Positions 3,311-43,663 of a DNA stretch of 49,188 nucleotides are shown here, one piece after another. The stretch covers positions 1-49,188 of the IMG/VR virus record IMGVR_UViG_3300050045_000036. One strand, given 5' to 3'. Numbering within the stretch: position 1 is the first letter of the stretch; each line of letters begins with the position of its first letter. The stretch is from a virus. The translations under genes were made by a program, and so were the position numbers. The notes under the pieces were generated by a model. That model was not told where the DNA came from and searched no databases. It saw only the letters and a list, made by a program, of their open reading frames with translations.

Positions 3311-3386
3311 GCCGGTATAGCTCAGTGGTTAGAGCTACGGTTTTGTAAACCGTGGGTCGGTGGTTCGAATCCATCTGCCGGCTCCA
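3311..3386 (+). tRNA. tRNA-Thr (anticodon TGT)
   Basis: Complete cloverleaf of 76 nt. Acceptor arms GCCGGTA and TGCCGGC pair over 7 bp, the anticodon loop TTTGTAA sits on a 5-bp ACGGT/ACCGT stem, the T arm has GGTTCGAATCC, and the CCA end is encoded. The anticodon TGT reads ACA and, by wobble, other Thr codons. Confidence 0.95.
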
Positions 3387-3397
3387 AATTTCAATGT

Positions 3398-3473
3398 GGG
3401 TTGTTAGCTCAGTTGGGAGAGCGCCTGACTTGCACTCAGGAGGTCAGAGGTTCGAACCCTCTACGATCCACCA
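3398..3473 (+). tRNA. tRNA-Ala (anticodon TGC)
   Basis: Complete 76-nt cloverleaf. Acceptor arms GGGTTGT and ACGATCC pair with two G-T wobbles, the anticodon loop CTTGCAC sits on a CCTGA/TCAGG stem, the T arm contains GGTTCGAACCC, and CCA is encoded. It lies 11 bp after tRNA-Thr, so both are probably one transcript. Confidence 0.95.
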
Positions 3474-5856: not shown

Positions 5857-8328
5857 ATGGCGAACTTCATCACAAAATTGTTCGACGGCATTGCACAGCG
5901 GAACCTTCCGCCTGCTGTCGAGCAACGTACCAGTCTGGAGAATCCGCAGACACCGCTGAGCTATCCCGCGGAGTGGCTGTTGGACATCTTCAACGGAGGT
6001 CGCACTGACTCAGGTATTCGTGTCAGTGAAATGACAGCGCTCCAAGTGGGCACAGTGTTCGCTTGCGTAAACGTCATCTCCGATGGTGTCTCTTCTCTGC
6101 CGCTGCATGTCTATCAGCGTGCCAAGATTTCTGGACGCGCCAGCAAGACGCTCGCGCTGGATTCACCGCTTTACAAGATCGTGCACACTGAGCCGAACCC
6201 CGAGATGACCAGCGCCGTATTCTTTAAGGTCGCCATGATCCATGCTCTACTCTGGGGCAACTCGTACTCGGAGATTGAGCGCGATGGCTCCGGACAGATA
6301 TGTGGACTCTGGCCACGCAATCCGGCACGCACTCGTCCAATCCGTTTGCTGAAGCCGATCATGTTCGAGGGAGACTTGCTGCCTGGCGGAACGCTGATGT
6401 ACGAAACATCCGACCAGCTCATGGACTCCAGCAGCTATGTCGTTGACCAGAATCCGGAAATGATGAACGTCGGATTGCGGCGCCTAGTGCTCGCGGAAAA
6501 CATGGTGCATGTCCCGGGGCTGTCTCTTGACGGTCGTCTTGGACAGAGCACAGTGTGGCTGGCGCGGCAGGCATTCGGTCTGGCACTCGCAACAGAGAAG
6601 TACGGCGCCAAGTTCTTTGGCAACGGCGCACGTCCGTCCGGCATCTTGACCTTCCCGAACAAGATGGAAGACAAGCAGATCGACACGGCTCGGCGCTCGT
6701 GGGCTGAAGCACACGGCGGAGAGAATCAATTCCGCGTGGCAGTGCTCGAAGACGGCGTGAAGTATACCAAGATCCAAGCCACACCTGAAGAAGGGCAGAT
6801 GCTGGAGACGCGCAAGTACGAGCGTGAAGAAATCTGCGCGATCTTCGGAGTGCCGGCGCACATGGTCTGCGCTCAAGACAAGGGCGGCAAGTCAAACGTT
6901 GAGCAGTCCAGCATCGAGTTCGTTCTGTACTGCCTGCATCCCTGGCTCAATCGCTGGGAGCAGGAGATGGAGCGCAAGCTATTCTCGAAGATGGGGCGCT
7001 CTGCCAGCAAGTACTTCGCGAAGTTCGACACGCGCAAGCTGATGTACCCCGATGCGGCAGCCCGCGCCACCTTCTACGCTTCCGGTAAGCAATGGGGCTT
7101 CCTGAACACGAATATCATTCTGGAAATGGAAGACATCAACCCGGTTGAGGATCCTAAGGTCGGTGAGACCTTCTGGATGCCGATTAACATGCAAGATGCT
7201 GGCGATCCGCAGAAGCTCGGCGCTGAGGACCAGAATGCTCTGGACATCAAGAAAGCCACTGCTGTTGCTGAGCACGGAGCGCAGATGGCGCAGGACACTG
7301 CGAAGGTCACTACGAACTTGCAGATGAAGACTGCGCAGCAAGCGCACGAGCACACAATGGCTCAGACGAAAGTCAGCAACAGTCACGAGCTGGCAAAGCA
7401 CAAGGCAGGGATTGCTCCTCCTGCGGCACCCGGAGCACCTGGGGCGCCTGCTGCTGGGAACGATGCAGGGGACCAGCCTGGACAGGCGAAGCGCACGATC
7501 ACAGACTTTGCAGAGATGCGCAGCGCCATGGAAACCTTGATGGAAGACGGCTTCCACTTCCGCAAGTCAGAATATGATGACGAGCTGGACGGAATCACCT
7601 ATACGTACCTGCATCCAGATCATCGGTCGGTACTGCTCACGTACAAGCAGGGACCTGTGGCAGTCGATGACAACAGTGTGGCTGCCGGCACGGGCAGAGA
7701 CAACATCGGAGAACTGTTCGCGGGCGGAGACTCACGGGACAAAGGTCCTGAGGGAAAGACCGACTACGTTCTGCGCCACGGCTGCACTAAAGCCAGCGAT
7801 GACGATGAGTACCGCGGCTGGGGAACTTACCCGCTCGACGCTGATGGAAAAGCTGAAGCGCTCGAAGCTGCCAAGTTCCTGCGCGACAAGGGTCTCATCA
7901 AGATCGTGACCAGCTCTCTTGTGCGGCATCAACAGACTGCACGGATCATTGCGAACGAGCTGGACATTCCCGTCGAGACTGACGAGAACTTCCGCACGCT
8001 GAACGTTGGAGACTTCATGGGCAAGAAGCGGAAAGTCTATGGCGAGAAGCTGCAAGAGTACTTGGACGATCCGAGCAAGGTGATCCCTGGCGGTGAGAGC
8101 GTCGACACGTTCATCAAGCGCAACGCTGGCGCCTTCGAGAAGGTGCGCTCTGACTCCCAGCAAACCCTGATCGTGACCAGCCGCAGCAACATCTTCGGCT
8201 TGATCGGTAAGGACACTGGAGAAGAGGTCAAGATCGCGAACCCTGGCGGAGTCTACACCCTGAACAACGGGAACAAGCTGGCACAGGTGCTCGGCGCTGC
8301 TGACACTGATACGCTGGCGGGTTCATAA
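5857..8328 (+). CDS. Portal protein fused to a histidine-phosphatase-like domain
   Basis: Residues about 1-440 are an HK97-family portal, the dodecameric ring through which DNA is packaged and ejected; typical parts are Thr-Val-Phe-Ala-Cys-Val-Asn-Val-Ile-Ser-Asp near 70 and Tyr-Glu-Arg-Glu-Glu-Ile-Cys near 320. An Ala/Met-rich helical segment and a Pro-Gly-Ala linker (to about 545) lead to a small unknown domain (about 548-610). Residues about 625-823 look like a histidine phosphatase (phosphoglycerate-mutase fold): RHG motif at Arg640-His641-Gly642, and Ser-Ser-Leu-Val-Arg690 followed by Gln-Thr-Ala. However, the usual acidic donor is Thr714 and the second catalytic histidine is Ser775, so enzyme activity is doubtful. 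At 823 aa it is nearly twice the usual portal length. Confidence 0.9.
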   Translation: MANFITKLFDGIAQRNLPPAVEQRTSLENPQTPLSYPAEWLLDIFNGGRTDSGIRVSEMTALQVGTVFACVNVISDGVSSLPLHVYQRAKISGRASKTLALDSPLYKIVHTEPNPEMTSAVFFKVAMIHALLWGNSYSEIERDGSGQICGLWPRNPARTRPIRLLKPIMFEGDLLPGGTLMYETSDQLMDSSSYVVDQNPEMMNVGLRRLVLAENMVHVPGLSLDGRLGQSTVWLARQAFGLALATEKYGAKFFGNGARPSGILTFPNKMEDKQIDTARRSWAEAHGGENQFRVAVLEDGVKYTKIQATPEEGQMLETRKYEREEICAIFGVPAHMVCAQDKGGKSNVEQSSIEFVLYCLHPWLNRWEQEMERKLFSKMGRSASKYFAKFDTRKLMYPDAAARATFYASGKQWGFLNTNIILEMEDINPVEDPKVGETFWMPINMQDAGDPQKLGAEDQNALDIKKATAVAEHGAQMAQDTAKVTTNLQMKTAQQAHEHTMAQTKVSNSHELAKHKAGIAPPAAPGAPGAPAAGNDAGDQPGQAKRTITDFAEMRSAMETLMEDGFHFRKSEYDDELDGITYTYLHPDHRSVLLTYKQGPVAVDDNSVAAGTGRDNIGELFAGGDSRDKGPEGKTDYVLRHGCTKASDDDEYRGWGTYPLDADGKAEALEAAKFLRDKGLIKIVTSSLVRHQQTARIIANELDIPVETDENFRTLNVGDFMGKKRKVYGEKLQEYLDDPSKVIPGGESVDTFIKRNAGAFEKVRSDSQQTLIVTSRSNIFGLIGKDTGEEVKIANPGGVYTLNNGNKLAQVLGAADTDTLAGS

Positions 8329-8338
8329 CGTAATCGGA

Positions 8339-8391
8339 TTGTCAACCTTAAGGATGCAAAGGTTGACAAACGTAAACCGAAAGGTTGACAA
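8339..8391 (+). promoter_or_regulatory. Alternative-pairing hairpin element over a start codon
   Basis: TTGTCAACCTT (8339-8349) can pair perfectly over 11 bp with AAGGTTGACAA at 8359-8369, or equally with an identical copy at 8381-8391. The second copy contains the Shine-Dalgarno (AAAGG) and the A of the ATG of the next gene. The two foldings exclude each other: one leaves the start site free, the other hides it. The repeats also each contain TTGACA, so a protein operator or -35 role is an alternative. Confidence 0.5.
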
Positions 8392-8666
8392 TGACGACCG
8401 CTTTGACTGTGAACAATCCGACGGCGCTTGTGAAGCATGAGCACAAGCCGCCTGCGCTCATCCACAAGCGCAAGCCGTACAAGAATCAAGTTCAGGACCA
8501 CGACCCGAAGTTGTGGAACCGCGCAAGACAGATCGCATGGATCCGCGCGAACTTCCGCAAGAAGGTCTGGCTCAAGTGGAACAACGGCAACATGGGTTGG
8601 CTGACACAGACGCCTGCCGTTGAGCTAATTCGCACGGGTCAGGCGAAGATGTTCCGACTGGGATAA
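8391..8666 (+). CDS. Basic hypothetical protein, 91 aa
   Basis: Not recognised. The ATG at 8391 is chosen because AAAGG lies six bases before it; a TTG two codons upstream falls inside the repeat element. The protein is Lys/Arg- and Trp-rich with a conserved-looking C-terminal part (Thr-Pro-Ala-Val-Glu-Leu-Ile-Arg). It lies between portal and protease and is probably a minor head or accessory factor, possibly nucleic-acid binding given its charge. Its start region may be controlled by the hairpin element just upstream. Confidence 0.55.
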   Translation: MTTALTVNNPTALVKHEHKPPALIHKRKPYKNQVQDHDPKLWNRARQIAWIRANFRKKVWLKWNNGNMGWLTQTPAVELIRTGQAKMFRLG

Positions 8667-8676
8667 AGGGGGAGCA

Positions 8677-8844
8677 ATGCAGCGCATCATTGACCAGCTC
8701 GATGAAATACTGGAGGGCTTCGACGAGAAGGCGCCGATGGGTCACCGTTTCCATACACCAACACGGCAAGACTTCGTCGCGCTCACGAAGTGTGTGAAGC
8801 AGATGGCAGAGCAGATACAGAATGAAGGGATCGAAATTGACTGA
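8677..8844 (+). CDS. Small helical protein, 55 aa
   Basis: Short gene with a strong GGGGGAG ribosome binding site five bases before the ATG. It encodes an amphipathic, acidic helical protein (Ile-Ile-Asp-Gln-Leu-Asp-Glu-Ile-Leu-Glu start) without cysteines or membrane segments. The 3' end overlaps the next start by 23 bp, indicating coupled translation. Function unknown. Confidence 0.55.
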   Translation: MQRIIDQLDEILEGFDEKAPMGHRFHTPTRQDFVALTKCVKQMAEQIQNEGIEID

Positions 8845-9634
8845 AGCGTTTCAGCAGCGCGTCATGGAACTGATGTCGGATCCGCTCTTCACCAAGAACA
8901 TGGGGAAAGCGCTGCCGCAGGCAGAGCCCTACAAGGCGCTCGGTGATGGCTTCGGCAACATCAGCGGTCAGGCATTCCCTGAGACGTGCTCCTGTCTCTG
9001 TCAGAATCCGGAAGTGTTCGGACCGCAGGGCGAGCCTCTATTCCGCTTCAGTGAAGACCAGCCCCGAGATCCTGATGGGAAGTTTGCGAGCGGATCAGGT
9101 AGCATGTGGAAGAAAGAAGAAGATGAACCTGACCACGTGAAAAAATTCTATGATCGTAAGCATGTAGCTGCTGACAAGGTGGTCGTTGACCAGCATGTAT
9201 TACCACATCATGTGGATGCTATCAAAGATGCAATGTCTTCTGGTACTAAATTTGATGTTGCTACAGCGGTAGCGAATGGAGATGGAACGTATACAGTAGA
9301 AGACGGCAGTCACAGAGTCACAGCAGCTAAGAATCTTGGAGAGGAAACAATACCGATACGCGTGATGAAAGAAGATTCTCGCTCATTCAATCCTGAGCAG
9401 CCGCGCGACAAGTCCGGAGTGTTCTCGATGGGCAACGTTGCCAAGTTCGAGAGCGAGGAAAAGGGGCTGATCGCATACGTCACCAAGTTCGAGGGTAAGT
9501 TCCATGTGAACGTGCTCAAAGCGGGTCAGCCGTGCCTGCCTGGCGCGATCTACTCTGACAAGCAGCAAGCCATCGACAAGGCGAAGGAGTTGCTGGCGGA
9601 GTTGAAGGTGAAGCCCGTCACAGGACAGCAGTAA
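8822..9634 (+). CDS. ParB-fold domain protein in the head module, 270 aa
   Basis: N-terminal 80 residues are a helical lead with a Cys pair (Cys-Ser-Cys-Leu-Cys). A linker of the type Gln-Pro-Arg-Asp-Pro-Asp-Gly-Lys-Phe-Ala-Ser-Gly (near 80-91), common in phage structural proteins, follows. Residues about 110-185 resemble the ParB/sulfiredoxin N-terminal fold: Val-Glu-Asp-Gly-Ser-His-Arg-Val-Thr-Ala-Ala-Lys with a following Ile-Pro-Ile-Arg-Val strand. A second similar linker (Glu-Gln-Pro-Arg-Asp-Lys-Ser-Gly) near 193 leads to a C-terminal alpha/beta module. Such proteins can be nucleases or nucleotide-binding proteins carried in the capsid; here the role is unproven. The stop overlaps the first possible start of the protease. 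Confidence 0.6.
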   Translation: MKGSKLTEAFQQRVMELMSDPLFTKNMGKALPQAEPYKALGDGFGNISGQAFPETCSCLCQNPEVFGPQGEPLFRFSEDQPRDPDGKFASGSGSMWKKEEDEPDHVKKFYDRKHVAADKVVVDQHVLPHHVDAIKDAMSSGTKFDVATAVANGDGTYTVEDGSHRVTAAKNLGEETIPIRVMKEDSRSFNPEQPRDKSGVFSMGNVAKFESEEKGLIAYVTKFEGKFHVNVLKAGQPCLPGAIYSDKQQAIDKAKELLAELKVKPVTGQQ

Positions 9635-9648
9635 TGATGAGGAGAACT

Positions 9649-11589
9649 ATGTCGGCAAAGCGCTGGCCGTTGCAGGTTAAGACACGGCAGGGAATGGGCT
9701 TTGAGGCTGGACTCATGAGTCCCGGCGCCGGCGGCAATCAAGCCAGTGATGGCGGACAAGCTGCCGACCCTGAGATGCTTCTGCGTGCGCAAGAGCAGCA
9801 CGTCACCACCGGCAAGTTCACAAAAGCTACGACACAATCGCTGGCATCCTCTACCGCCGATGCCGCGGGGCACAACAGCACCAAGTTCGAAGTCGGAGAT
9901 GAAGTCAAGAGCAAGTCGGGCGGATCTGGAGTTGTCAGCAGCATGGAAGACGGGATCCTCACCGTAAAGACCGACGACGGGAAGACTGAGAAGTGGCAAG
10001 CAGTCCTCACCGATAAGAGGGAGACAATGAGCACCAACATCGAAATCCGTTATGCATCCAAAATGACTGTTGAAGAGCGCGGCGATCAGGGCGATGAAAT
10101 GGCGCTCGTCGGTTACGCTGCTACTTACAACAGCCTTTCGAATCCGCTGCCGCAGGGGTTTGTCGAGAAGATTGCCCCCGGCGCATTCGATCGCGCTCTG
10201 GCTGAGAAACAGGACTGCCGGTGCCTCTTCAATCATGACTCCAGCCGCGTGCTCGGTCGTGTTTCTTCCGGCACATTGAAACTTTCTTCGGATGATAAGG
10301 GCTTGAAATTCCGTTGCCTTCTGGATCCGAACCAGCAAGCACACCGAGACCTCCACGCCGCTGTCAAGCGGGGAGACATCAGCGATTGTTCGTTTGCGTT
10401 CTCTCCGAACGGAGTGGATGGACACGACTTCGACGATGTCCGCCAGCAAGATGGTTCGTGGCTGATGATTCGCACCTTGAAGGACGTGAATCTGTACGAT
10501 GTCTCGGCTGTCACACATCCTGCATATAATGACACTTCAGTATCAGCGAGGGACGCTCAAATGACACCTGAAATCCGAAGCATCGTGACCAAGCTGCTCG
10601 AAAAGCGAGCGCAGACCGAGAAGCGGGACGCATTCGATTGTCTCGAAGATTACATCGGCGCCATCAGCAAAGCAATGGCGGAGAAGTTCCCCTGCGAGCC
10701 CGTAGAGGGAGACGGCGGCGCTTGCTGCTCTTCTTACGGCAAGTTCTACATTCTGGAGACGCACGTCGATCACGTGATCGCTTGCAATAACTACGGTCCC
10801 GGACCGCAGGAGTTCGTGAGCATCCCCTATGTCATCAGCCCTGACGGTGATGGCTTCGTGTTCGGCACTCCAGTACCGATGGAGAAAGAATACGTGCCCG
10901 CTGAGCGCACCGCGAAGAAAGTTGAAGAGCATCGCGCGATGCACTCTGGACACATGCAAGCGATTGCAGACCAGCATGCTGCCGCGGCAGCGGAACACAA
11001 TGCCATGAGCGATGCTCATGCTGCCGCATCCACTGAGCACAGCGCACATGCTGACGCGCATCAAGAAGTGGCCGACGACGCTGCCAAAGAAGCTGAGCGC
11101 ATGAAGAAGTGCGAAGACTCCGACGGCGACTGCGCTGTCAAGGGCTGCCGATGTCAGAACTGCCGTTGCGATGACTGCGACGTCTGGGACGATGAAGACA
11201 TTGACGGCGAGAATCAAGACGACCGCTCCAAGCGCATGCTGGCAAAGTATGGCGCCGAGAAGCGCGATGCTGCTGGGAAGACTCTCACCAAGAAGGTTGG
11301 CGGGAAGAACTTGCCGGCAAGCGCATTCGCATCGGTCGGTGATCCGAATGACACCAGCACTTGGAAGCTGCCTGTCCATGACAAGGCGCATGCTGACAAT
11401 GCTGCTGCCCGCCTCGACCAGACTGCCGACATCGACAAAGATGCCGCCAAAGCCAAGATCGAAGCAGCGCAGAAGAAGTTCGGGGAGAAGACTGACACGC
11501 GCTCTATCGACCCCAACGCGCTGCCGATGAGCACAGAAGAAGTCGAAGACACGCTCAATCGTCTGCGGCTCAAGACAATGATTCTGTAA
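9649..11589 (+). CDS. Prohead protease (HK97 type) with extra N- and C-terminal domains
   Basis: Capsid maturation protease that cleaves head proteins inside the procapsid. I choose ATG 9649, five bases after GGAG; an ATG at 9634 overlaps the previous stop. The protease core spans about residues 130-305, with the catalytic His in Phe-Asn-His-Asp (His 196) and the catalytic Ser in Asp-Cys-Ser-Phe-Ala-Phe (Ser 248). Before it lies a Tudor-like Val-Gly-Asp-Glu-Val module (about 80-125). After it come an unknown domain (310-420), an Ala/His-rich coiled coil (about 425-480, scaffold-like), a Cys-rich acidic cluster (about 490-515) and a DUF6582-like module (Leu-Pro-Ala-Ser-Ala-Phe, about 545-620). 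At 646 aa it is two to three times the usual size. Confidence 0.9.
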   Translation: MSAKRWPLQVKTRQGMGFEAGLMSPGAGGNQASDGGQAADPEMLLRAQEQHVTTGKFTKATTQSLASSTADAAGHNSTKFEVGDEVKSKSGGSGVVSSMEDGILTVKTDDGKTEKWQAVLTDKRETMSTNIEIRYASKMTVEERGDQGDEMALVGYAATYNSLSNPLPQGFVEKIAPGAFDRALAEKQDCRCLFNHDSSRVLGRVSSGTLKLSSDDKGLKFRCLLDPNQQAHRDLHAAVKRGDISDCSFAFSPNGVDGHDFDDVRQQDGSWLMIRTLKDVNLYDVSAVTHPAYNDTSVSARDAQMTPEIRSIVTKLLEKRAQTEKRDAFDCLEDYIGAISKAMAEKFPCEPVEGDGGACCSSYGKFYILETHVDHVIACNNYGPGPQEFVSIPYVISPDGDGFVFGTPVPMEKEYVPAERTAKKVEEHRAMHSGHMQAIADQHAAAAAEHNAMSDAHAAASTEHSAHADAHQEVADDAAKEAERMKKCEDSDGDCAVKGCRCQNCRCDDCDVWDDEDIDGENQDDRSKRMLAKYGAEKRDAAGKTLTKKVGGKNLPASAFASVGDPNDTSTWKLPVHDKAHADNAAARLDQTADIDKDAAKAKIEAAQKKFGEKTDTRSIDPNALPMSTEEVEDTLNRLRLKTMIL

Positions 11590-11655: not shown

Positions 11656-12810
11656 ATGGCGAAATATCTGACACCGGCGCAGCAAGAGATTCGCAACCTG
11701 CTGAATGAGGCAGACGAACTCTCTCGGCGCTCTGAACCGAGCAAGCAGGACACAGCGCGATCGGCGTACATCTACGCCAAAATCAAAGCGCTGTCCTCGG
11801 GCATTGACGCTGTGGACTATCGGACGCAGTTCTTCTCCGACCTGTTCCGCGGCAGAGCGCCCAAAGCTGAAGTACGCGCCACGCCGCTCGAAGCTGGAAC
11901 ACAGTCGATCACGTACAGCGGCGGGAATGAAGGCGGCTATCTCGTTCCGCAAGAGTACCATGACGAAGTGATCTTCGGTATGGCGCAGTACGATCCTCTT
12001 CTGAACAAGGACATCGTCACTCTGATCGAGTCGAAAGACCAGTCGCTCAGACCGTACACAGTTCCCGGCTGGGACATGAGCACTTTCGCTGCTGTCAAAG
12101 TCTCGGAGAATGCACAACAGATTCCGCAGACCACGCCGCCTGCTGCGAGCGGAGTAATACTCGGTGGCTACAAGTACATGGCTAGCCTGCCCGTAACAAA
12201 CGAGCTGGAAGAGGACATGTACGAAGTCACCCAAAAATTGATGGCTGATGCTTTCACTGTCGCGTTCGCGCGCGGCATCGGCGCTGACTTGATTCTCGGT
12301 TCAGGCACGAACGCGCCACAAGGCGTGATTGCCGGAACGACCAGTGCTTACACGCTTGCCGCTCTCGGTGTTGTGTCTCTCACTGACATTGAAAACATCT
12401 ATTTCAAAGTGAATCGCTTCCACCGCGCTTCTCCCAAGTGTGCTTGGCTGATGAATGATGCCGCATACCAGATGACGCGCAAGGCTGCGGACACTGTTGG
12501 CAACCCGCTTTTGAAGATCATCAAGGACAAGGAAACACTGATGGGCAAGCCCGTGTACATCTGCCCTTCTCTGCCCTTGTACAATCCCTCGCTTGGCACA
12601 CAGGCTGCTGGTTCATTTTGCGCATTCGGTGACTTGAGCCATATGTATGTGCGCGTGTCCCGCCTCAGCGTATCGCGGTCGACACAGGCTGCTGGCTATG
12701 CCGAGAACGGCAAAGCGCTCTACCGCGGGCTGATGCGTGCTGATGCGAAAGTATTTGATCCGTCAAGCGGCGCTACACCTCCGATTGTGACTGCCGCACT
12801 GCACAGCTAA
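11656..12810 (+). CDS. Major capsid protein, HK97 fold (first copy)
   Basis: 384 aa. N-terminal helical (delta-like) segment up to about residue 75 with many charged residues, then Ser-Gly-Gly-Asn-Glu-Gly-Gly-Tyr-Leu-Val-Pro (about 92-102), the characteristic beginning of the HK97 core, and Gly-Ser-Gly-Thr-Asn-Ala-Pro-Gln-Gly (about 216-224), a common capsid signature. The C-terminal domain ends with Lys-Ala-Leu-Tyr-Arg-Gly-Leu-Met-Arg-Ala-Asp-Ala. It forms the icosahedral shell. It directly follows the protease, the normal order. A second, clearly different HK97-fold capsid gene follows at 13792. Confidence 0.88.
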   Translation: MAKYLTPAQQEIRNLLNEADELSRRSEPSKQDTARSAYIYAKIKALSSGIDAVDYRTQFFSDLFRGRAPKAEVRATPLEAGTQSITYSGGNEGGYLVPQEYHDEVIFGMAQYDPLLNKDIVTLIESKDQSLRPYTVPGWDMSTFAAVKVSENAQQIPQTTPPAASGVILGGYKYMASLPVTNELEEDMYEVTQKLMADAFTVAFARGIGADLILGSGTNAPQGVIAGTTSAYTLAALGVVSLTDIENIYFKVNRFHRASPKCAWLMNDAAYQMTRKAADTVGNPLLKIIKDKETLMGKPVYICPSLPLYNPSLGTQAAGSFCAFGDLSHMYVRVSRLSVSRSTQAAGYAENGKALYRGLMRADAKVFDPSSGATPPIVTAALHS

Positions 12811-13705: not shown

Positions 13706-13791
13706 TGCTCCTGCCCGAGAGTTGATTGCGGGCAAAATCCCGCTGTAAACAATCCCAAAACTCAACTCAAAAGGAAAAGGAAGGTTTTGCT

Positions 13792-15222
13792 ATGTCCAAA
13801 AAGAATGAATTGCTCGAAAAGCGAGCGCGTATCCACACTGAAGCTGTGGCTGCGATGGCTGCGGAACAGACTGCGGAAACCCGCGCAAAAGTGAAGACGA
13901 TGTTCGCTGACATCGACTCGATCGGCGAGGACCTTGCCAACATCGAGCGTGCCGACAAAGTTGCGGCTGACCTCGCTCAGCGCAGCGGTGCGATTGCACC
14001 CGGCGCAGAGCAGCGCAGTGCGCAGACCGCCACAGAAGCCGCAGAGTATCGCGAAGCGTACTTTGAGTTTCTGATGAAGGCACACCCCGAATCCCGGTCC
14101 GCAGTTGCCGGTGGCGCTTCCAAAGAAGCCATCGCACTGTTGGAGAAGACGAAGCAGAGCGTCGAGAAGATGTCTGCCGAGCAGCGCCGCTCGGCAGTAC
14201 TGAACCAAGTCAAAGCTGAGAAGCGCGACCAGTCCGCTGGTTCGCAGTCGATTCTCTACACCGAAGGCAACCTGGGTGGATACTTCATCCCCGCTGGCTT
14301 CGTGTACGACGTCGATACTGCGACCAAGTACTTCGCGCCTCTGTTGGATGGTTCGACCATCCGCGTGATGGAGACTGCAACCGGAAACGTGTTGCCGTAC
14401 CCCACCAGCAACGACACCAACCAAGCGTGGACTCTGTTGTCTGAAAACACGCAGGTCGTCGACAACGGAACGACTCCCAACTATCCGAACCAGGGCACCT
14501 CGGCTCCCACAGCGAACCCCGGCAACGTGCTGGTTGGCAGCGTCTCCTTCAGCGCATACAAGGGCACCACTGGACTTGTGCGCGTGTCGCTCGAACTGAT
14601 GCAAGACAGCGCATTCTCGCTCGAAGCATTCCTGAAAGAAGCATTCGCCAACCGTCTCGGACGTGGGTATGAGTACTACCTCACGCAGGGTTCGGGCAGC
14701 AATGCTCCTCTCGGCTTCATTCCGGCTATCGCCGCTTCTGGCGCGCCACCGGTGGTTGCTCAGGGCTCCTTCAACGAAGATGGCATCTCCGGTAACACCG
14801 GCGTCAACTCCATCGGCTGGCAGGATCTTGTCAACCTGGAGCACTCCGTCGACCCGACCTACCGTCGGGGCGCGAAGTGGCAGATGAGCGATTTGACTCT
14901 TGCCAGCCTGAAGACTCGGTTGGACAAGTTCGGTCGCCCCTTCTGGGTACCGGCTGTGAAAGAGGGAATGGTCGATACGATTCTCGGCTACCCCTATGTC
15001 ACCAACCAGAGCATGGCTCAGATCGGCGCTTCGGCGACCACTGTTGCCTTCGGACAATGGAGCAAATTCATCGCCCGCAAGGTGCGTGACCTGTCCATCT
15101 CCCGTCTGGATGAGCGCTTCGCTGACTACGGTCAGGTTGCTTATGTGGGATTCAGCCGTATTGACTCCCGCCTGATCGACGCCGGCACTCACCCCCTCAA
15201 TGTGCTGATTCAGCACTCCTAA
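13792..15222 (+). CDS. Major capsid protein, HK97 fold (second copy)
   Basis: 476 aa from the ATG at 13792, which has an AAGGAAAAGGAAGG ribosome binding region. Residues 1-150 form a long charged helical N-terminus, typical of the scaffolding delta domain removed by the prohead protease. The core starts at Glu-Gly-Asn-Leu-Gly-Gly-Tyr-Phe-Ile-Pro (about 157-166), and Gly-Ser-Gly-Ser-Asn-Ala-Pro-Leu-Gly-Phe lies near residues 300-309. It has its own GTCACA-type promoter with a structured leader and its own strong terminator, suggesting very high expression; this may be the principal coat protein. It is not a recent duplicate of the 11656 gene, since only short signatures are shared. Confidence 0.9.
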   Translation: MSKKNELLEKRARIHTEAVAAMAAEQTAETRAKVKTMFADIDSIGEDLANIERADKVAADLAQRSGAIAPGAEQRSAQTATEAAEYREAYFEFLMKAHPESRSAVAGGASKEAIALLEKTKQSVEKMSAEQRRSAVLNQVKAEKRDQSAGSQSILYTEGNLGGYFIPAGFVYDVDTATKYFAPLLDGSTIRVMETATGNVLPYPTSNDTNQAWTLLSENTQVVDNGTTPNYPNQGTSAPTANPGNVLVGSVSFSAYKGTTGLVRVSLELMQDSAFSLEAFLKEAFANRLGRGYEYYLTQGSGSNAPLGFIPAIAASGAPPVVAQGSFNEDGISGNTGVNSIGWQDLVNLEHSVDPTYRRGAKWQMSDLTLASLKTRLDKFGRPFWVPAVKEGMVDTILGYPYVTNQSMAQIGASATTVAFGQWSKFIARKVRDLSISRLDERFADYGQVAYVGFSRIDSRLIDAGTHPLNVLIQHS

Positions 15223-15246
15223 TCGAGTGCTGTTTCGAACGGAATC

Positions 15247-15284
15247 GCGGCAGAGAGAAAACAAGCTCTCTGCCGCTTTACTTT
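15247..15284 (+). terminator. Rho-independent terminator after the second capsid gene
   Basis: Perfect 11-bp stem GCGGCAGAGAG / CTCTCTGCCGC (15247-15257, 15266-15276), 8-base loop, followed by TTTACTTT. Confidence 0.9.
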
Positions 15285-17452: not shown

Positions 17453-18475
17453 ATGGGAGCAATCACCCAGAATAAGTTCACGGTCAACGCGCGATTGCTT
17501 GCGCTGGAACAAGAGATGGTGGAACTGCGCAAGCAGTACGGACTCGTTCAGTTGCAGGCAGGTCCGCAAGGCGCAGCAGGACAAGCAGGACAGAAAGGCG
17601 ACAAGGGAGACCCCGGAGTTGGACTGTCAGGACGTGACGGTCTCAACGGAGCAGATGGACGGCAAGGTCCGAAAGGGGACCGCGGAGACAAAGGTGATCG
17701 TGGAGAAAAGGGCGGTCAGGGAGAGCGCGGCGCTGCTGGTCACAATGGCATCAAAGGGGACAAAGGGGATAACGGAGAGCGCGGCGCAAAAGGCGATGAC
17801 GGTCTGAGCATCAAAGGAGATGCTGGACAGCGCGGAGAAAAAGGTGATCGTGGTGATGTCGGTCCTCAGGGAATGAGCATTATAGGACCACGCGGTGAGA
17901 AGGGTGATAAGGGTGATGTAGGAGCACCAGGACGCGATGGGGTCGATGGAAAGAACGGTGCTGATGGGAAAGATGGACGGCATGGGAAAGACTCTACCGT
18001 GCCAGGACCGAAGGGAGAGAACGGCTGGCACGGGAAAGACGGTGCAAAAGGAGAGCAAGGAGAGCAAGGAGAGCGCGGGTTACAAGGAAAGAACGGTGCT
18101 GATGGGAAAGATGGACGGCATGGGAAAGACTCTACCGTGCCAGGACCGAAGGGAGAGAACGGCTGGCACGGGAAAGACGGTGCAAAAGGAGAGCAAGGAG
18201 AGCGAGGAGAGCGCGGGTTACAAGGAGAGAAAGGTGATAAGGGCGAGCGCGGCGATGTCGGTCCTCAAGGTGCTAAGGGAGAGAAGGGCGACATTGCTGC
18301 TGTCACAGAGTCCGAGTTATTAGAGGCGGTGCAGAAGTTGCGCAGACGCCATGCAGCAATTCTTGCGAAGCTGGTGCATGAGCGAGAGTTGAATGATTCA
18401 GTTCCGAATAGTGCACTGAAAGCGGCGCTAAATGCTGTTTTGAACAGGATAGAAAGAGCAGCCAATGTCAACTAA
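17453..18475 (+). CDS. Collagen-like fibre protein, 340 aa
   Basis: Residues 1-38 form a short coiled coil (Leu-Ala-Leu-Glu-Gln-Glu-Met-Val-Glu-Leu-Arg-Lys). Residues about 39-280 are almost uninterrupted Gly-X-Y triplets with many Lys-Gly-Asp and Arg-Gly-Glu units, which fold as a trimeric collagen-type helix. The C-terminal 60 residues are helical and charged, probably a trimerisation cap. A 46-residue unit is repeated in tandem. The gene follows the stopper by 3 bp and overlaps the tailspike start by 11 bp, so the two are co-translated; it probably forms a rod, perhaps as stalk for the tailspike. There is no signal or membrane segment. Confidence 0.9.
   Translation: MGAITQNKFTVNARLLALEQEMVELRKQYGLVQLQAGPQGAAGQAGQKGDKGDPGVGLSGRDGLNGADGRQGPKGDRGDKGDRGEKGGQGERGAAGHNGIKGDKGDNGERGAKGDDGLSIKGDAGQRGEKGDRGDVGPQGMSIIGPRGEKGDKGDVGAPGRDGVDGKNGADGKDGRHGKDSTVPGPKGENGWHGKDGAKGEQGEQGERGLQGKNGADGKDGRHGKDSTVPGPKGENGWHGKDGAKGEQGERGERGLQGEKGDKGERGDVGPQGAKGEKGDIAAVTESELLEAVQKLRRRHAAILAKLVHERELNDSVPNSALKAALNAVLNRIERAANVN
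17948..18223 (+). repeat. Tandem 138-bp duplication inside the collagen gene
   Basis: Two nearly identical 138-bp units (17948-18085 and 18086-18223), exactly 46 codons each, so the frame is kept. I saw one base difference near the end (caagga versus cgagga). The low divergence points to a recent duplication or active length variation. Confidence 0.85.
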
Positions 18476-42634: not shown

Positions 42635-43663
42635 ATGGCAGACATGAAAGTGATCGAGGCTGCTATCTCGAATCTTGAGAAGCAGCACGGCGCTGGTTGT
42701 GTGATGCGTCTCGGCAGCAAGAAGGCGCTGAACGTCCAAGTAATCCCCACTGGGATTCTCTCATTCGATGTGGCGCTCGGCGTCGGAGGCTTCCCGCGCG
42801 GGAGAGTCGTTGAAGTCTTCGGACCTGAGTCGGGCGGCAAGACAACTCTGGCGCTGCAAGTCATTGCGCAAGCCAACGCATCAAAGGGCATGGCAGCCTT
42901 CGTCGATGCTGAGCATGCGCTCGACCCCAAGTATGCGCGGGCACTTGGTGTGGATGTTGACAACCTGCTCATCTCGCAGCCTGATTACGGTGAGCAAGCG
43001 CTGGAGATTACCGAAGCGCTTGTGCGCACAAACCAATTCGATGTGATCGTCGTCGACTCCGTTGCTGCTCTCGTTCCGAAAGCTGAACTTGACGGAGAGA
43101 TGGGAGACAGTCACATGGGCTTGCAGGCGCGGCTGATGTCTCAAGCACTGCGCAAGCTGACAGGTTGCGTCGCCAAGTCTCGCACCTGCCTCATCTTCAT
43201 CAACCAGATTCGTGAGAAGATTGGAATTGTGTTCGGCAACCCAGAGACAACAACTGGTGGGCGCGCTCTGAAGTTCTACGCCTCAGTTCGGATCGACGTG
43301 CGTAAGGGACAACTCATCAAGGACGGTGAGAAAGTCATTGGCTCGATGAACAAGTTCAAGATCGTGAAGAACAAAGTGGCAGCGCCCTTCACCGAAGCCG
43401 AAGTTCCCATCTATTACGGCTCTGGCTACTCACAGATGCATGACCTTCTCAAGCTAGCAGTAGACAGTGGAATTGCTGAGCGCGCTGGTTCATGGTATAG
43501 TTATAAAGGAGAACGCATTGGTCAAGGCGCCGAAAATGTTGTTTCTTTCTTGTCAGAGCACTGGGAAGATGTCGCGCAAAAAATGTACAATGAGACACGA
43601 AAAAAGATCATGCCTCCCGATGAAAGTGTGTCCGCGCTGTCACAAGCGGAAGCGAAGAAATAG
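42635..43663 (+). CDS. recA: RecA-family recombinase
   Basis: Full-length RecA (342 aa) for strand exchange and recombination-dependent repair. Seen: N-terminal helix with [10 protein letters not shown], the Met-Arg-Leu-Gly segment, Walker A Gly-Pro-Glu-Ser-Gly-Gly-Lys-Thr-Thr (residues about 66-74), catalytic Glu in Phe-Val-Asp-Ala-Glu-His-Ala-Leu, Walker B [10 protein letters not shown], loop 1 [11 protein letters not shown], and [10 protein letters not shown] with loop 2 Asn-Pro-Glu-Thr-Thr-Thr-Gly-Gly. The tail is shorter and less acidic than in bacterial RecA. AGGAG precedes the ATG. Its last 44 bp are also used by an endonuclease gene. Confidence 0.96.

What the first reader, a model, noticed from the sequence alone, without database searches (positions are those of the whole stretch)
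5857..8328. Portal protein fused to a degenerate histidine-phosphatase domain
About 200 residues at the portal C-terminus keep the RHG motif (Arg640-His641-Gly642), the second Arg (690) followed by Gln-Thr-Ala and the overall order of the phosphoglycerate-mutase superfamily, yet Thr714 replaces the usual acid and Ser775 the second catalytic His. The domain would sit twelve times at the portal, in or outside the capsid. It could bind phosphate-rich ligands such as DNA or nucleotides, or be an ejected effector, rather than a phosphatase. I know of no described portal with this fusion.
Basis: partly seen in the sequence, partly recalled or inferred. Interest (0 to 1): 0.78.

Follow-up and report, generated by a model that had tools for sequence, protein, structure and literature searches.

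The report
Phage portal carrying a pseudo-phosphatase domain
The DNA-entry ring (portal) of this uncultured phage carries, at its end inside the head, a histidine-phosphatase domain with part of its active site missing, and related phages keep the same domain fused to, or encoded beside, their portal genes, so it looks like a portal-linked accessory module rather than a sequence accident.

Summary
One 823-aa frame (5857-8328) joins an HK97-type portal (PF04860, E 4e-95) to a branch-1 histidine-phosphatase (HP) domain (PF00300, E 2.5e-25; residues 633-823). R640-H641-G642 and R690 are kept; T714 and S775 replace the acid and the second His. AlphaFold gives a confident HP fold (pLDDT mostly 85-97). 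It is not an artefact: fused portals were found in further IMG/VR contigs and one peat MAG contig. Two non-fused near relatives exist; one encodes the HP as a separate gene. In podovirus-like contigs with an unrelated portal, a free HP gene abuts the portal gene. HPs are therefore recurrently linked to portals, move between fused and free forms, and were swapped on near-identical portals. The acid position is non-acidic in all 17 distinct phage HPs examined; the second His is kept in 8 and is Ser in 9, including the whole window clade, where 'TSRSN' is invariant. The domain is acidic, which argues against DNA binding. Best reading: a capsid-interior, portal-tethered phospho-ligand-binding accessory or effector, a new domain in the described class of portal/MuF-effector fusions. 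Function is untested.

The parts
5857..8328 (+). 823-aa portal with C-terminal HP domain
   Evidence: single open frame; Pfam portal + His_Phos_1
6052..7134 (+). HK97-type portal core, residues 66-426
   Evidence: PF04860 E 3.8e-95; Foldseek best hit HK97 portal 8cez, E 2.8e-24
7222..7356 (+). long helix after the core, residues 456-500 (crown-side extension, inferred)
   Evidence: AlphaFold secondary structure
7357..7485 (+). Pro/Ala/Gly-rich linker, residues 501-543
   Evidence: pLDDT < 50 for residues 497-543
7483..7650 (+). small alpha/beta segment, residues 543-598 ('YxYLHPD'), also in HP-less portals L007 and L011
7651..7755 (+). flexible linker, residues 599-633
   Evidence: pLDDT < 50
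7753..8325 (+). degenerate histidine-phosphatase domain, residues 633-823
   Evidence: PF00300 E 2.5e-25; pLDDT mostly 85-97; Foldseek 6nru, 1h2e TMt 0.75
7774..7782 (+). R640-H641-G642 (RHG motif) kept
7924..7926 (+). R690 kept
   Evidence: invariant in 17 of 17 phage HPs
7996..7998 (+). T714 at the usual acid position
   Evidence: Glu in 3 bacterial HPs; T, P, A or S in 17 of 17 phage HPs
8179..8184 (+). S775-R776 at the second-His position ('TSRSN')
   Evidence: invariant in the six-member window clade; His in 8 of 17 phage HPs
3602..5476 (+). large terminase, upstream context
   Evidence: PF03354 and PF20441
9634..11589 (+). prohead protease S78 (651 aa), could process head proteins
   Evidence: PF04586 E 1.4e-44

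Best explanation
The domain is a portable histidine-phosphatase module that these phages attach to the portal, either fused to its C-terminus or made from the next gene. SHOWN: the fusion, its recurrence, fused/free exchange, HP homology, the missing acid and second His, and the acidic composition. INFERRED FROM HOMOLOGY: twelve copies hang by flexible linkers from the portal crown inside the capsid. INFERRED: with R640, H641, G642 and R690 kept but the acid and second His gone, the window version binds a phosphorylated ligand (nucleotide, phospho-metabolite or phosphoprotein) rather than turning it over. SPECULATIVE: it serves phage-host conflict or early infection as a virion-borne accessory, like enzymatic domains on MuF and portal proteins, with the His-keeping relatives possibly active enzymes and the window clade a binding-only derivative.
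For: Fusion and fold. Recurrence; PF00300 matches 13 of 40 portals aligned. Portal linkage without choosing by HP: in 50 siphovirus-type records HP occurs in 8, in the portal frame in 7 and free in the head module in 1; in 50 podovirus-type records HP occurs in 5, beside the portal in all. The podovirus neighbour is a portal by fold (SU10, T7, N4, P22 portals, prob 1.00). Modularity: L008's portal is 84% identical to the window's but its HP groups with the free gene of L087; HP-less near relatives L007 and L011 exist. Pocket retention: all six pocket positions are among the 64 of 191 invariant columns of the window clade (hypergeometric P 0.001). Constraint: HP dN/dS 0.11-0.24 against L006, L012, L013, L096. 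Crown inside the capsid. Catalytically dead HPs acting as ligand binders: PMC10728186. Portal- and MuF-effector fusions: PMC5512222, PMC5576092.
Against: No ligand, activity or virion proteomics. Twelve copies per virion is few for a titrating effector. No toxin-like or defence-linked neighbour was found. Fused to the portal, the domain would stay in the head unless cleaved, so injection needs an unproven step. dS is close to saturation in the constraint test. The invariance test ignores shared ancestry.
Confidence: 0.5

Rival explanations
1. Assembly accessory: the HP domain works only in head building or DNA packaging, for instance by docking scaffold, protease or another head protein at the crown, with its pocket used as a protein-binding site.
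For: Location at the crown, which lines DNA entry; free HP genes sit in head modules; twelve-fold copy number fits structure.
Against: Dispensable: portals about 85% identical lack it (L007, L011). Swapped between very different HP types on near-identical portals. Pocket Arg and His kept.
Confidence: 0.25
2. Working phosphatase: the domain hydrolyses a phosphoester using H641 with an unconventional acid or base in place of T714 and S775.
For: Nucleophile H641 invariant in 17 of 17; relatives keep the second His. Replacing catalytic His residues in rat fructose-2,6-bisphosphatase cost less than 10-fold (quoted in PMC10728186).
Against: No acid at the usual place in any phage HP and no second His in the window clade.
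Confidence: 0.13
3. DNA-binding ring: twelve HP domains clamp packaged DNA through phosphate pockets.
For: Phosphate-pocket Arg residues kept; the crown contacts DNA in HK97.
Against: All phage HPs measured are acidic, net charge -3 to -24, pI 4.4-5.6; free versions exist.
Confidence: 0.05
4. Passenger without function: a domain captured by recombination and tolerated at the portal C-terminus.
For: Patchy distribution and mosaic genomes.
Against: Invariant TSRSN and pocket columns at about 50% identity, purifying selection, and linkage to two unrelated portal families.
Confidence: 0.06
5. Frame or assembly error joining two genes.
For: None found.
Against: Same fusion in contigs from other samples.
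Confidence: 0.01

Closest known systems
Portal fusions of polyvalent proteins (PBECR, 2H phosphoesterase, InPase, lysozyme on portal domains; PMC5512222)
   Same: Enzymatic domain fused to the phage portal, proposed to be packaged and delivered; inactive versions are also noted, for example the PBECR of phage Mu MuF (gp30).
   Different: The text never uses 'phosphatase' or 'phosphoglycerate'; here the domain is HP, alternates with free portal-adjacent genes, and is catalytically degenerate.
MuF polymorphic toxins (PMC5576092)
   Same: Head protein encoded immediately downstream of the portal gene, often with variable C-terminal effector domains; SPP1 gp7 binds the portal.
   Different: Here there is no MuF domain: HP sits on the portal itself or stands alone in the slot after the portal.
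Histidine phosphatase superfamily branch 1 (PhoE 1h2e, CobC 6nru)
   Same: Fold, RHG motif, second Arg, overall motif order.
   Different: No acid and no second His in the window version; attached to a portal.
[quoted passage not shown]
   Same: HP-superfamily domain that lost catalytic residues (XcAP-1 has Ser for the second His) and binds ligands instead.
   Different: Secreted animal acid-phosphatase-like (branch 2, own knowledge) proteins; they lost the nucleophilic His, which the phage domain keeps.

Membership tests
HK97-type phage portal (PF04860) | portal core homology over the family model | tested here: met
   E 3.8e-95, model positions 2-321 of 321; Foldseek 8cez E 2.8e-24
HK97-type phage portal (PF04860) | dodecameric ring at the portal vertex with crown inside the capsid | not testable with these tools
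   inferred from HK97 and SPP1
Histidine phosphatase superfamily, branch 1 | HP fold and sequence homology | tested here: met
   PF00300 E 2.5e-25; pLDDT mostly 85-97, TMt about 0.75 to 6nru and 1h2e
Histidine phosphatase superfamily, branch 1 | RHG motif with nucleophilic His | tested here: met
   R640-H641-G642
Histidine phosphatase superfamily, branch 1 | second catalytic Arg | tested here: met
   R690
Histidine phosphatase superfamily, branch 1 | second catalytic His | tested here: not met
   S775; Ser in all six of the window clade
Histidine phosphatase superfamily, branch 1 | acidic proton donor | tested here: not met
   T714; no Asp or Glu at this position in 17 phage HPs
Histidine phosphatase superfamily, branch 1 | phosphatase or mutase activity | not testable with these tools
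   sequence predicts none or strongly reduced
Virion-borne effector fusions (polyvalent or MuF type) | enzyme-type domain fused to a head protein or encoded in the slot after the portal | tested here: met
Virion-borne effector fusions (polyvalent or MuF type) | MuF domain present | tested here: not met
   Pfam and PHROGs show portal and HP only
Virion-borne effector fusions (polyvalent or MuF type) | delivery into the host cell | not testable with these tools
   needs virion proteomics and translocation assays

The most novel reading that the evidence does not exclude
Portal-linked histidine phosphatases are a widespread, undescribed virion-borne phage system: the module was recruited separately by two unrelated portal families, works fused or in trans, is swapped like a specificity cassette, and in the window clade has become a binding-only trap for a phosphorylated host signal or defence factor.
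Probability: 0.2. Interest if true: 0.8.

Novelty: new variant of a known kind. Interest (0 to 1): 0.58.

Why it matters
The portal is among the most constrained phage proteins. A recurrent, swappable phosphatase-like domain at its inner face, also found as a free gene next to unrelated portals, points to a virion-associated function that current annotations miss ('portal protein' or 'unknown', PHROG 12933). Natural pairs that keep or lack the second His, and near-identical portals with and without the domain, give ready-made comparisons for testing what portal-tethered enzyme-like domains do.

Tried and rejected
Frame or assembly artefact: rejected by independent contigs. DNA-binding ring: disfavoured by charge. 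Cultured-phage precedent: none found; HP-like hits in the phage collection are mostly unannotated records, and the three examined are ordinary short stand-alone HPs; Pseudomonas phage PseuP_222's HP lies among hypothetical genes in its early/regulatory region, not by a portal. Genome scan with the whole protein found nothing; an HP-clade alignment found one peat MAG contig plus ordinary bacterial HPs. The broad alignment A2 was too diverse for pattern search. Very low HP synonymous divergence against L004 and L005 is explained by mosaic recombination, since identity varies along the whole genome. Sequence profiles gave only weak hints that the podovirus neighbour is a portal (one PHROG portal match, P22_portal E 0.077); structure prediction settled it. 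For L051 and L060 the His lies one residue after the Ser, so the alignment there is uncertain.

Full report
OBSERVATION. The frame 5857-8328 is one open frame of 823 residues. Pfam assigns 66-426 to Phage_portal (E 3.8e-95) and 637-776 to His_Phos_1 (E 2.5e-25); PHROGs agree (portal phrog_12; phrog_12933, unknown function). Genome order is normal for a tailed phage: small terminase, large terminase, portal, S78 protease, capsid. The record is an IMG/VR virus contig.

STRUCTURE. AlphaFold with 40 aligned sequences gives a portal core, a helix 456-500, disorder 497-543, a small alpha/beta segment around 543-598, disorder 599-633, and a confident HP domain from about 636 (pLDDT mostly 85-97). Foldseek's best PDB hits are the HK97 portal (8cez, E 2.8e-24) and, for the C-terminal part, CobC 6nru and PhoE 1h2e (TMt about 0.75). 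[quoted passage not shown] in HK97 the crown is exposed at the inner capsid surface (PMC10359639). So the HP domains should lie inside the head. This is inference by homology.

RELATIVES. A scan with the portal core returned 80 IMG/VR loci. Fused HP domains occur in L004 and L005 (98-99% portal identity), L006 and L009, L008, L012, L013, L015, L025, L032, L051 and L060, in L190 and L189, and in L096, a contig in a peat Methanoregulaceae MAG. L007 and L011 have portals about 85% identical without HP. The contig of L011 (L087) carries an HP gene of its own, ORF 9949-10683, with a possible inner start at 10075, just after a head-tail adaptor gene. In the podovirus-type contigs L094, L095, L110 and L111 a free HP gene begins at or within a few bases of the end of an 800-833-aa gene. 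Profiles did not name that gene convincingly, but its predicted structure matches SU10, VP1, N4, T7 and P22 portals (probability 1.00). L120 has an HP frame upstream of its portal.

LINKAGE. To count without choosing by HP, I searched PF00300 in 100 whole records picked by their portals. In 50 siphovirus-type records HP occurs in 8: in the portal frame in 7, free in the head module in 1. In 50 podovirus-type records it occurs in 5, all beside the portal. The events are not all independent: L094, L095, L110 and L111 are one lineage, and this podovirus-type portal family was itself reached through an HP hit (L094).

EVOLUTION. On the portal tree the fused state needs five changes, at least four of them on well-supported branches. 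On the HP tree, L008's domain groups with the free L087 gene (88/88), apart from the window clade (92/99), although L008's portal lies inside the window's portal group. That is best read as a domain swap. The phage HPs separate from the three bacterial-type outgroups (97/97), but outgroup sampling is thin.

ACTIVE SITE. Across 17 distinct phage HPs, H641 and R690 are invariant and R640 is kept in 16 (L111 has His). The acid position is T, P, A or S in all. The second His is kept in 8 (L008, L087, L025, L094, L110, L111, L120, L190) and is Ser in 9; in L051 and L060 a His follows that Ser. In the six-member window clade T774-S775-R776-S777-N778 is invariant, and all six pocket positions tested are among the 64 invariant of 191 columns (P 0.001, ignoring shared ancestry). 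HP dN/dS against relatives is 0.11-0.24 where dS is measurable, with dS near saturation. So this looks like a remodelled site under selection rather than free decay. Net charge is -3 to -24 in the 15 domains measured.

KNOWN SYSTEMS. Two literature searches for portal with histidine phosphatase or phosphoglycerate mutase found no such fusion. Polyvalent-protein work describes PBECR, 2H, InPase and lysozyme domains on portal proteins and proposes delivery; its text contains neither 'phosphatase' nor 'phosphoglycerate' (PMC5512222). MuF proteins, encoded just after the portal, carry variable toxin domains (PMC5576092). Dead HPs that bind ligands are known in fleas (PMC10728186). So the class of arrangement is known; the domain, the fused/free alternation and the clade-specific loss of the second His are new as far as I could search.

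VERDICT. A real, recurrent, portal-linked HP module; in this phage probably a non-catalytic phospho-ligand binder inside the capsid. The biological role is unproven.

Noticed in passing
window 11656-12810 and 13726-15222 (+): Two genes that both match Phage_capsid (PF05065) lie close together; the related contig L087 has the same pair (6075-7214 and 7269-8744).
   Followed up: partly
window 13762-15264 (-): A 500-aa open frame runs antisense to the second capsid-like gene; probably a by-product of composition, not examined.
   Followed up: no
window 3311-3473 (+): tRNA-Thr and tRNA-Ala genes sit between the small and large terminase genes.
   Followed up: no
window 42635-43663 (+): Full-length bacterial-type RecA (PF00154, E 2.7e-128) encoded by the phage.
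   Followed up: no
window 8822-9634 (+): 270-aa protein with weak ParB-like partition matches, between portal and protease.
   Followed up: no
window 17453-18475 (+): Collagen-repeat tail-fibre-like protein (PF01391).
   Followed up: no
window 7483-7650 (+); L006, L007, L008, L011: A small 'YxYLHPD' segment before the HP domain is kept even in portals that lack HP (L007, L011).
   Followed up: partly
window 8314-8325 (+); L006, L008, L012, L013, L015, L087, L094, L096: Most phage HPs, fused or free, end in Gly-Ser or Gly-Thr; possible C-terminal signal.
   Followed up: no
L094 3395-4462: Ice-binding-like protein gene (PF11999, E 6e-39) directly upstream of the podovirus portal.
   Followed up: no
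L018 3234-5300: The portal tail holds an insert with a 'YHGTAIENVEGILARGI' stretch resembling ADP-ribosyltransferase-type domains; no Pfam support.
   Followed up: partly
L111 7413-7988: Free HP with His-His-Gly in place of Arg-His-Gly, a different kind of active-site loss.
   Followed up: no
L096: A fused-portal contig binned in a Methanoregulaceae archaeon MAG; either mis-binned or a hint at an archaeal host.
   Followed up: no
window 1-22000 against L004 and L005: Strong mosaic identity (about 60-100% in 250-base steps) along structural genes, a sign of frequent recombination among these phages.
   Followed up: partly
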